The notes beneath the pieces are model-generated. The model saw only the letters and a program-made list of their open reading frames with translations, did no database searches and was not told the DNA's origin. DNA of 58,555 nucleotides from Candidatus Izemoplasma sp. (GTDB lineage: Bacteria; Bacillota_I; Bacilli_A; Izemoplasmatales; Izemoplasmataceae): contig SLQR01000032.1 of NCBI GenBank assembly GCA_007131405.1, positions 1-58,555 of the forward strand. Reading direction: 5' to 3'. How positions within the stretch are numbered: position 1 is the stretch's first letter; the number at the start of each line of letters is the position of its first letter. Positions 47,838 to 50,242 of the stretch are shown here, piece by piece. Position numbers and translations under genes: made by a program.

Positions 47838-47846
47838 CCGCATTTA

Positions 47847-47874
47847 AGCGCGCCATGTAGGCGCGCTTTTTTAT
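47847..47874 (+). terminator. Intrinsic terminator
   Basis: AAGCGCGC-catgta-GGCGCGCTTTTTT. Confidence 0.88.
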
Positions 47875-47887
47875 TTCCGAAAAAGCA

Positions 47888-47917
47888 TTGACAACGCTTA
47901 CATTTATCGACTATAAT
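47888..47917 (+). promoter_or_regulatory. Consensus sigma-70/sigA-type promoter of the lysine-fermentation operon
   Basis: TTGACA (47888-47893), 18 bp spacer, TATAAT (47912-47917). Confidence 0.9.
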
Positions 47918-47929
47918 GACGGTGTGTAA

Positions 47930-48100
47930 AGCACACAGAGGCGCAAAGCGTTGGGTAGTTTTTAGTGGCTTAAGAAGCCGGATCTTCGACACTAAAAAAC
48001 GAAGGCACGTTTTGCCGAAAGAGTTATGAAATTCGGTCATAACACTTGGTGATTGAGGGCACGCTTCAATCATTGCCATTTATTAAAATGGAGAGCTGGT
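47930..48100 (+). ncRNA. Lysine riboswitch (L-box) aptamer
   Basis: AGAGGCGC...GGGTAGT core; L2 hairpin GAAG-CCGGAT-CTTC (47974-47987) whose loop is complementary to the L3 loop ATTCGG (48031-48036) in GTTATGA/TCATAAC; GCCGAAAG...ACTTGG; P4 GATTGA/TCAATC; P5 CCATTT/AAATGG; GGAGAGCTG 3' core. Confidence 0.88.
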
Positions 48101-48125
48101 TAGTATAACAGCTCTTTTTATATTT
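48090..48125 (+). terminator. Intrinsic terminator expression platform of the lysine riboswitch
   Basis: AGAGCT(G)GTTA-GTA-TAACAGCTCTTTTTATATTTT; the 5' arm overlaps the aptamer 3' end. Confidence 0.85.
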
Positions 48126-48144: not shown

Positions 48145-48567
48145 ATGATTCATTCGATACACATTGGGGATGAACGACGTTACAAACGCATCATTACCCA
48201 AACAGACGTAAAACGTTTTGGTGAAGTCAGTGGGGACATGAATCCAATTCATTTTGATGAGCATTACGCGAGTCGAACAGTGTTTAAGAAGCCGATTGTT
48301 CACGGCATGCTAGTGGGTTCCTTATTTAGCAAACTCTTCGGCATGTATTATCCCGACGCGGGTATGATCTATTTATCGCAATCGCTTAAGTTTATTAAGC
48401 CGGTTTATCCAGACACCGAGCTTGACATTGTGGTGCGTGTTAAAGAAGTTATACTTGAAAAAAACCGGGTCATCTTTCAAACCGACATCTACGGTGATGC
48501 CGAACAACTTTTACTCACCGGTGAAGCAATCATGATGCCACCTAAAGCAAAGGATTCCAATGAATAA
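48145..48567 (+). CDS. MaoC-like (R)-specific enoyl-CoA hydratase
   Basis: GDMNPIHFDEHYASRTVFKKPIVHGMLVGSLFSKLFG (MaoC/PhaJ hydratase motif). Confidence 0.88.
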   Translation: MIHSIHIGDERRYKRIITQTDVKRFGEVSGDMNPIHFDEHYASRTVFKKPIVHGMLVGSLFSKLFGMYYPDAGMIYLSQSLKFIKPVYPDTELDIVVRVKEVILEKNRVIFQTDIYGDAEQLLLTGEAIMMPPKAKDSNE

Positions 48568-49216
48568 ACGCATAGACAAACAAGCTTTTATCGATAAGCT
48601 TAAAGACGGTCAAACCGTCATGGTCGGTGGGTTTATGGCGGTTGGAACCCCAGAAATTCTGATTGATTGGATGGTTGAGGCAAACGTACAAGACTTAACC
48701 TTAATCTGTAACGATGCTGGGTTTGGCGATAAAGGCATCGGCAAACTTATTAAAAACAATCAAGTAAAAAAACTCATTGCTTCCCATATCGGACTCAACC
48801 CCTACGCGGGCCAACGTATGAGCGAAGGAACCTTAAGTGTTGAACTGGTGCCACAAGGAACCTTAGCCGAACGGATCCGTGCTTTTGGTGCGGGACTTGG
48901 TGGTTTGCTTACCCCAACTGGGATGCATACACTAGTTGAAGAAGGCAAACAAGTCATCAACGTTGAGGATAAACCCTACTTGCTTGAAACAGCCCTTGGG
49001 GCAGATCTTGCGCTTATTGAAGCAAAAACAAGCGATCATTATGGGAACCTCATTTACGATAAAACTGCGCGTAACTTTAACCCGGTGATGGCCACGGCCG
49101 CACACGAAGTCATCGCCCTTACTCATAATCTAGTAAAGACACTCGACCCTGAATGCATTGTTACCCCACATGTCTTTGTGGACGCCTTAGTCATGGAGGT
49201 GCACGATGAACGCTAA
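48560..49216 (+). CDS. atoD: Butyrate/butyryl-CoA:acetoacetate CoA-transferase subunit A
   Basis: DGQTVMVGGFMAVGTPEILIDWMVE, GLNPYAGQRMSEGTLSVELVPQGTLAERIRAFGAGLGGLLTPTG. Confidence 0.92.
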   Translation: MNKRIDKQAFIDKLKDGQTVMVGGFMAVGTPEILIDWMVEANVQDLTLICNDAGFGDKGIGKLIKNNQVKKLIASHIGLNPYAGQRMSEGTLSVELVPQGTLAERIRAFGAGLGGLLTPTGMHTLVEEGKQVINVEDKPYLLETALGADLALIEAKTSDHYGNLIYDKTARNFNPVMATAAHEVIALTHNLVKTLDPECIVTPHVFVDALVMEVHDER

Positions 49217-49853
49217 AGAGATTATTGCATCCCGTGTGGCTAAAGAACTAAGCGATGGTGACTTAGTCAATTTAGGCATCGGACTACCAACCTTAGTCGC
49301 AAACTATGTGCCGAGTAACATCGACGTGTTTTTTCAAAGTGAAAACGGATTAATTGGGCTTGGCCCAACCCCAGACGACGATGAAATCGATAAGAATCTT
49401 ACCAATGCCGGTGCGCAATACGTCACCTTAAAACAAGGAGGCATGTATTTCGACTCCGTCACATCCTTTGGGATTATCCGCGGAAACCACGTGAATATTA
49501 CCGTTTTAGGCGCTTTAGAAGTTGACGCCGAAGGCTCCCTTGCTTCATGGATTATTCCTGGAAAACTTGTCCCTGGCATGGGTGGCGCAATGGACTTAGT
49601 GGTGGGCGCAAAAAAAGTGATTATCGCGACAACCCATACCAATAAAGGCAAACCAAAAATCAAAAAACGATGCACCTTACCCCTCACGGCCTATAAAGAA
49701 GTTGACATGATTGTGACAGAACTGGCGGTCATGGAAGTCAGAGACGATGGCTTGCATTTACTTGAGCGTCATCCTAATGCCACCATTGAAACAATCATTG
49801 AACAAACCGACGCACCACTGATTATCAATCACGTAAAATTAATGGAGGTATAA
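49206..49853 (+). CDS. atoA: Butyrate/butyryl-CoA:acetoacetate CoA-transferase subunit B
   Basis: [31 protein letters not shown] (catalytic E in SENG), [14 protein letters not shown]. Confidence 0.93.
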
Positions 49854-49855
49854 AC

Positions 49856-50242
49856 ATGAAAAACGTTATGCACCGATTACGCTTATCCCAAGCGGACGCA
49901 CATTATGGTGGCGATTTAGTTGATGGCGCAAAAGTCTTAGCCTTTTTTGGCGACGTGGCCACCGAACTTTTAATTCATACCGATGGGGATGAAGGCCTCT
50001 TTCGTGCCTATGAATCCATTGACTTTTTAGCCCCACTTTACGCGGGTGACTTTATCGAAGTCGAAGCAACCCTTATTCACAAAGGCAACACTTCACGCAA
50101 AATTGAATTTGCTTGCTACAAAGTGATTACAGCAAGAAAAGACATCAGCGCATCCGCAGCGGATTGTTTAAAGGAACGCGTCCTTACCACCAAAGCAGTA
50201 GGAACTTGCATCGTGCCAAAGGACAAGCAACGTCATGAATAA
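49856..50242 (+). CDS. kal: 3-aminobutyryl-CoA ammonia lyase
   Basis: Hot-dog fold [65 protein letters not shown]; position between atoA and kce. Confidence 0.9.

What the first reader, a model, noticed from the sequence alone, without database searches (positions are those of the whole stretch)
47888..48125. Lysine riboswitch whose architecture predicts an ON switch for a catabolic operon
Seen: consensus promoter, then an L-box-like leader. The L2 loop CCGGAT (47978-47983) can form 6 pairs (one G-U) with the L3 loop ATTCGG (48031-48036), the kissing-loop hallmark of lysine aptamers. The aptamer 3' core GGAGAGCTGGT (ending ~48100) is also the 5' arm of the intrinsic terminator AGAGCTG...CAGCTCT-TTTTATATTTT. 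A short P1 (AC-A-CAG 47933-47938 with CTGGT 48096-48100, one bulge) would compete directly with the terminator. Ligand-stabilised P1 should therefore antiterminate, so lysine switches its own fermentation ON. This is the opposite of the classical lysC/lysine-biosynthesis OFF switches. Established: L-box elements upstream of lysine-degradation genes have been proposed in a few anaerobes. Inference: the direction of regulation here.
Basis: partly seen in the sequence, partly recalled or inferred. Interest (0 to 1): 0.82.

Follow-up and report, generated by a model that had tools for sequence, protein, structure and literature searches.

The report
Lysine-activated RNA switch for lysine fermentation
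A lysine-sensing RNA sits in front of the lysine-burning operon of a wall-less Izemoplasma-type bacterium and is built so that lysine should turn the operon on; this was already predicted for a few other anaerobes, but here the same layout recurs in 72 of 73 copies found upstream of this operon.

Summary
Window 47928-48106 (+) matches the whole Rfam lysine aptamer RF00168 at 66.9 bits (cut-off 30). It lies between a 12/12 sigma-70 promoter and the operon maoC-like/atoDA/kal/kce/kdd/kamA/kamB/kamD/kamE. The kissing loop, the P1/terminator overlap and the stated coordinates are correct. The inferred direction (lysine ON) is strongly supported by comparison. I found 131 distinct lysine riboswitches, mostly in the same order (Izemoplasmatales by named relatives). 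The terminator's 5' arm overlaps the P1 3' strand in 62/62 upstream of kam operons and in 0/69 upstream of other genes. Most transporter- and lysA-linked copies instead have a separate terminator plus an antiterminator-type pairing (classical OFF layout). Thirty-seven genomes carry both types. Caveats: the kam-linked aptamers form one clade, so this is one inherited lineage, not 62 independent cases; one Clostridia member lacks the overlap; nothing was measured. ON lysine riboswitches for lysine catabolism were predicted earlier (PMC2258182, PMC5584792), so this is a new member of a known kind. Its value is a clean ON/OFF pair in cultured Xianfuyuplasma coldseepsis zrk13, for which RNA-seq already exists.

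The parts
47846..47868 (+). intrinsic terminator of the preceding gene, separating the kam operon as its own transcription unit
47888..47917 (+). sigma-70 type promoter TTGACA-18-TATAAT, 12 of 12 matches
47928..48106 (+). lysine riboswitch aptamer, RF00168, full length
   Evidence: 66.9 bits
47933..47938 (+). P1 5' strand (AC-A-CAG)
   Evidence: sequence; model alignment
47943..48015 (+). P2 arm with L2 loop CCGGAT at 47978-47983
   Evidence: fold; model alignment
48019..48047 (+). P3 hairpin with L3 loop; ATTCGG 48031-48036 can kiss L2
   Evidence: conserved complementarity in relatives
48048..48074 (+). P4 hairpin
48076..48091 (+). P5 hairpin
48092..48098 (+). AGAGCUG: J5/1 plus inner P1 3' strand, and at the same time the 5' arm of the terminator (the switching segment)
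48109..48119 (+). terminator 3' arm CAGCUCU and U tract
48145..48567 (+). maoC-like hydratase/hotdog gene, first gene of the operon
48560..49853 (+). atoD and atoA, CoA-transferase subunits
49856..50242 (+). kal, 3-aminobutyryl-CoA ammonia lyase
   Evidence: NF052388
50235..51077 (+). kce, 3-keto-5-aminohexanoate cleavage enzyme
   Evidence: NF052387
51055..52095 (+). kdd, 3,5-diaminohexanoate dehydrogenase
   Evidence: NF052381
52110..53375 (+). kamA, lysine 2,3-aminomutase
   Evidence: TIGR03820
53368..56632 (+). kamB, kamD, kamE: lysine 5,6-aminomutase reactivase and subunits
   Evidence: NF052386, NF052384, NF052385

Best explanation
This is a transcriptional lysine riboswitch with ON logic. 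Without lysine, the nascent RNA folds P2-P5 and then the terminator 48092-48115, whose 5' arm is made of J5/1 and the inner P1 3' strand, so RNA polymerase stops at the U tract before maoC/kal/kce/kam. When lysine is abundant it binds the five-way junction as P1 closes, holds AGAGCUG in the aptamer, the terminator cannot form, and the lysine fermentation operon is transcribed. Shown: the aptamer family, the mutually exclusive pairings, the operon, and conservation of the layout. Inferred: lysine binding, the effect of lysine on termination, and the kinetic nature of the choice.
For: RF00168 66.9 bits. Operon = lysine fermentation set. Overlap of terminator 5' arm with P1 3' strand in 62/62 kam-linked and 0/69 other lysine riboswitches; 10 of 11 further kam/kal-linked sites agree. 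Transporter-linked copies instead pair GGCGCUA with UAGUGUC ahead of a separate terminator, the classical OFF layout. Both competing helices keep pairing when the shared segment changes: P1 C-G to U-A with the terminator partner following in 5 of 6 changed rows, and J5/1 A-U to C-G in the terminator. The default state favours the terminator: -56.0 against -47.9 kcal/mol with P1 enforced, median gap 10 kcal/mol over 62 leaders. Binding-core bases of J1/2, J2/3 and J5/1 are the same in kam-linked and other aptamers. dapA and lysA were not found in this draft genome, and lysA not in any of the five genomes of the genus, so burning lysine only when it is plentiful makes sense.
Against: No binding or transcription data. 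The kam-linked aptamers are one clade (SH-aLRT 95), so the 62 cases are not independent. P1 in the window is only 3 contiguous pairs plus 2 beyond a bulge, and the computed gap of about 8 kcal/mol is larger than equilibrium binding at ordinary lysine levels would be expected to overcome, so the switch must work kinetically within roughly 20 nt of transcription. One kal-linked riboswitch in a Clostridia genome (G223) has no direct overlap.
Confidence: 0.87

Rival explanations
1. The terminator always wins: P1 is too weak to compete, and the leader is a degenerate riboswitch acting as a constant attenuator.
For: P1 is short and bulged in the window; the terminator state is 8 kcal/mol better without ligand; the window aptamer scores below many relatives.
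Against: The aptamer core is intact, P1 and the shared segment are kept in relatives including all four other genomes of the genus, and transporter-linked lysine riboswitches in the same clade have equally short P1.
Confidence: 0.06
2. It is an OFF switch: lysine binding promotes termination through an arrangement not seen here.
For: Most studied lysine riboswitches are OFF; the 69 non-kam copies in the set lack the overlap, most with the OFF-type layout.
Against: P1 and the terminator share the same bases, no antiterminator of 6 or more pairs was found in any of the kam leaders tested, and repressing lysine catabolism by lysine has no evident use.
Confidence: 0.03
3. The kam-linked aptamers respond to another ligand of the pathway, such as beta-lysine, rather than L-lysine.
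For: They form a separate clade with a lineage-specific A to G change in the P2 loop-E motif.
Against: The junction bases are invariant and shared with transporter- and biosynthesis-linked copies; the changed position lies in P2, away from the junction.
Confidence: 0.04

Closest known systems
Lysine riboswitches upstream of kal/kce in Clostridium sticklandii, Fusobacterium nucleatum and Thermoanaerobacter (PMC5584792; ON logic for some lysine riboswitches also stated in PMC2258182 citing Rodionov 2003)
   Same: Same aptamer family, same catabolic pathway, same predicted positive regulation.
   Different: Different phylum and operon (maoC-ato-kal-kce-kdd-kam in one unit); the expression platforms of those species could not be compared here. 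The one Clostridia kal leader found here lacks the direct overlap.
lysC-type lysine OFF riboswitches (L box)
   Same: Aptamer RF00168 with five helices and kissing loop.
   Different: There P1 frees the terminator by breaking an antiterminator; here P1 uses up the terminator's own 5' arm.
Adenine pbuE and glycine gcvT ON riboswitches
   Same: Ligand-bound aptamer buries part of a terminator stem, activating genes that remove or use the ligand (glycine and adenine named as ON examples with lysine in PMC2258182; gene names from own knowledge).
   Different: Different aptamers and ligands.

Membership tests
Lysine riboswitch RF00168 | Covariance-model score above the curated cut-off, full length | tested here: met
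   66.9 bits against 30, positions 1-182
Lysine riboswitch RF00168 | Five helices P1-P5 around a conserved junction (AGAGG.GC, GCCGAA, G.GCU) | tested here: met
   P2-P5 in the free fold; P1 in the model alignment; junction bases invariant
Lysine riboswitch RF00168 | L2-L3 kissing interaction | tested here: met
   6 possible pairs in the window (sequence); in kam-linked relatives 28 of 58 have 5 or more pairs against 9% with shuffled L3
Lysine riboswitch RF00168 | Sarcin-ricin (loop E) motif AGUA/GAA in P2 | tested here: inconclusive
   GGUA instead of AGUA at 47954-47957, as in 86% of kam-linked copies; opposing strand kept
Lysine riboswitch RF00168 | Selective L-lysine binding | not testable with these tools
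   needs in-line probing or ITC
Transcriptional ON riboswitch | Terminator 5' arm overlaps the ligand-stabilised P1 3' strand | tested here: met
Transcriptional ON riboswitch | No antiterminator that P1 would disrupt | tested here: met
   longest candidate pairing in the window leader 2 bp
Transcriptional ON riboswitch | Read-through increases with ligand | not testable with these tools
   experiment proposed
lysC-type OFF lysine riboswitch | Separate terminator with an antiterminator that uses the P1 3' strand | tested here: not met
   met by most non-kam copies, not by the window

The most novel reading that the evidence does not exclude
The kam-linked aptamers are a separate functional subclass with altered ligand tuning, for example a preference for beta-lysine or a much weaker lysine affinity suited to a catabolic threshold, marked by the clade-wide loop-E change.
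Probability: 0.08. Interest if true: 0.65.

Novelty: new member of a known kind. Interest (0 to 1): 0.45.

Why it matters
One aptamer family appears to be wired with opposite logic in the same cell: 37 genomes carry an ON-type switch for lysine fermentation beside lysine switches that lack that layout, mostly OFF-type, for uptake or synthesis. That gives natural matched pairs for studying how an expression platform sets polarity. It also bears on an old prediction about catabolic lysine riboswitches for which I found no experiment in the held papers, in a lineage with a cultured member and public RNA-seq.

Tried and rejected
The default Rfam scan of the whole window returned nothing; this is a filter effect, not absence. 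A first terminator finder that allowed long hairpins reported overlaps in some transporter-linked copies; these were antiterminator-type hairpins, and restricting to compact hairpins next to a U tract removed them. In the extended set two non-kam copies were flagged by weak hairpins without a proper U tract and were discounted by eye. A short P1 as a mark of ON switches was rejected: transporter-linked copies are equally short. A first kissing-loop test over the whole P2 arm was too permissive and was repeated on the loops alone; that second test mis-picks the window's own L2 loop because isolated P2 folds differently, so the window's kissing pairs rest on the full-leader fold and the sequence. 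A separate-origins test of the kam/overlap link had no power because the kam copies are one clade. A small alignment included one irrelevant filler row and was not used.

Full report
Observation. The leader at 47928-48106 (+) is a full-length match to the Rfam lysine aptamer (66.9 bits, cut-off 30), although the fast whole-window scan missed it. It is the only such match in the draft genome (1.46 Mb, about 86% complete). A perfect-hexamer promoter with an 18-base spacer lies at 47888-47917, and a terminator of the upstream gene at 47846-47868 separates the unit.

Operon. NCBIfam assigns kal, kce, kdd, lysine 2,3-aminomutase, KamB, KamD and KamE above their cut-offs; atoA and atoD pass CoA-transferase subfamily cut-offs, and the first gene is a MaoC-type hydratase by weaker similarity. 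This is lysine fermentation to butyrate and acetate (own knowledge of the pathway). dapA and lysA were not found in the genome, and lysA not in any of the five genomes of the genus, so the cells probably import lysine. Named near relatives of the kce gene are Candidatus Izimaplasma, Acholeplasmataceae and other Tenericutes genomes.

Architecture. The segment AGAGCUG (48092-48098) is J5/1 plus the inner P1 3' strand and also the 5' arm of the terminator. Free folding gives P2-P5 plus the terminator; the terminator state is -56.0 kcal/mol and enforcing P1 instead costs 8.1 kcal/mol. So the default is termination, and ligand must act by holding P1 before the 3' arm is made. The interval between the P1 3' strand and the end of the U tract is about 20 nt, which demands a kinetic mechanism. 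This part is inference.

Comparison. Scans of the family, the order and named relatives gave 131 distinct lysine riboswitches, sorted by downstream gene: 62 kam operon, 41 amino-acid ABC transporter (one further probable), 14 lysA, 12 M20 amidohydrolase, 1 NhaC-like. With one rule applied to all, the terminator overlapped the P1 3' strand in 62 of 62 kam-linked and 0 of 69 others. Most of the others have a separate terminator and a pairing of at least 6 bp between the P1 3' region and the terminator region, typical of OFF switches; for the amidohydrolase class that pairing was found in only 5 of 12. Thirty-seven genomes carry a kam-linked copy together with another class.

Beyond the order. 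Among KAL-positive genomes sampled in the class of an Eubacterium relative, only one (G223) had a lysine riboswitch next to kal, and it has a separate terminator. In other families of the window's own class the overlap recurs with different sequences, e.g. GGGGCGCUAUU...AAUGCGUCC and ACCGGUUAAACAU...AUGUUUAGCCGGU. In all, 72 of 73 kam/kal-linked copies show the overlap.

Covariation. Where P1 changes from C-G to U-A, the terminator partner changes with it in 5 of 6 rows; in J5/1 an A-U to C-G change is seen in the terminator stem. These counts read partners from predicted hairpins and so lean towards pairing. L2-L3 complementarity is conserved while its sequence changes.

Independence. On aptamer-core columns, with P1 and J5/1 left out, the 73 kam-linked copies are one clade (SH-aLRT 95). 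The association is therefore one lineage that has kept its layout, not many convergent cases. The exception G223 falls in the same clade.

Known work. PMC2258182 already lists lysine riboswitches with ON logic that bury terminator pieces, citing an earlier comparative study, and PMC5584792 (section 13) states that kal/kce-linked lysine riboswitches regulate positively. Searches of the held library found no direct experiment, but subscription papers are not held. A 2026 study reports covariation between the lysine aptamer and its terminator region in general (PMC13273304).

Verdict. A real lysine riboswitch; ON logic very likely; a new member, in a new bacterial group, of a kind already predicted. 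The best use is the cultured relative zrk13: its genome length equals G045, it carries a kam-linked and a transporter-linked copy, and RNA-seq in poor and rich medium is public.

Noticed in passing
window 47954 and kam-linked copies: A lineage-wide A to G change in the P2 loop-E motif (GGUA instead of AGUA): G in 86% of kam-linked copies, A in 99% of the others.
   Followed up: partly
transporter- and amidohydrolase-linked lysine riboswitches, e.g. L033, L077: These copies show no L2-L3 kissing complementarity (0 of 40 and 0 of 6 with 5 or more pairs) and are shorter, suggesting reduced P2/P3 arms.
   Followed up: no
L247 (G223:C13:40924-41110): A kal-linked lysine riboswitch in a Clostridia genome with an 11 bp P1 and a separate terminator 56 nt downstream; its logic is unclear. 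AUGGA...CUAUU could pair with AAUAG.UCCAU.
   Followed up: partly
L046 (G003:C56) and L049 (G002:C1): Two lysine riboswitches about 1.4 kb apart, one before an M20 amidohydrolase gene and one before lysA, in one operon-like run.
   Followed up: no
L059, L080, L039: In some relatives the operon begins with an extra 240 aa gene (sequence looks like a short-chain dehydrogenase) and carries a 403 aa gene between maoC and atoD.
   Followed up: no
window, Rfam scan: A 66.9-bit riboswitch is lost by the default filters when 58 kb is scanned against all Rfam families, a warning for annotation pipelines.
   Followed up: yes
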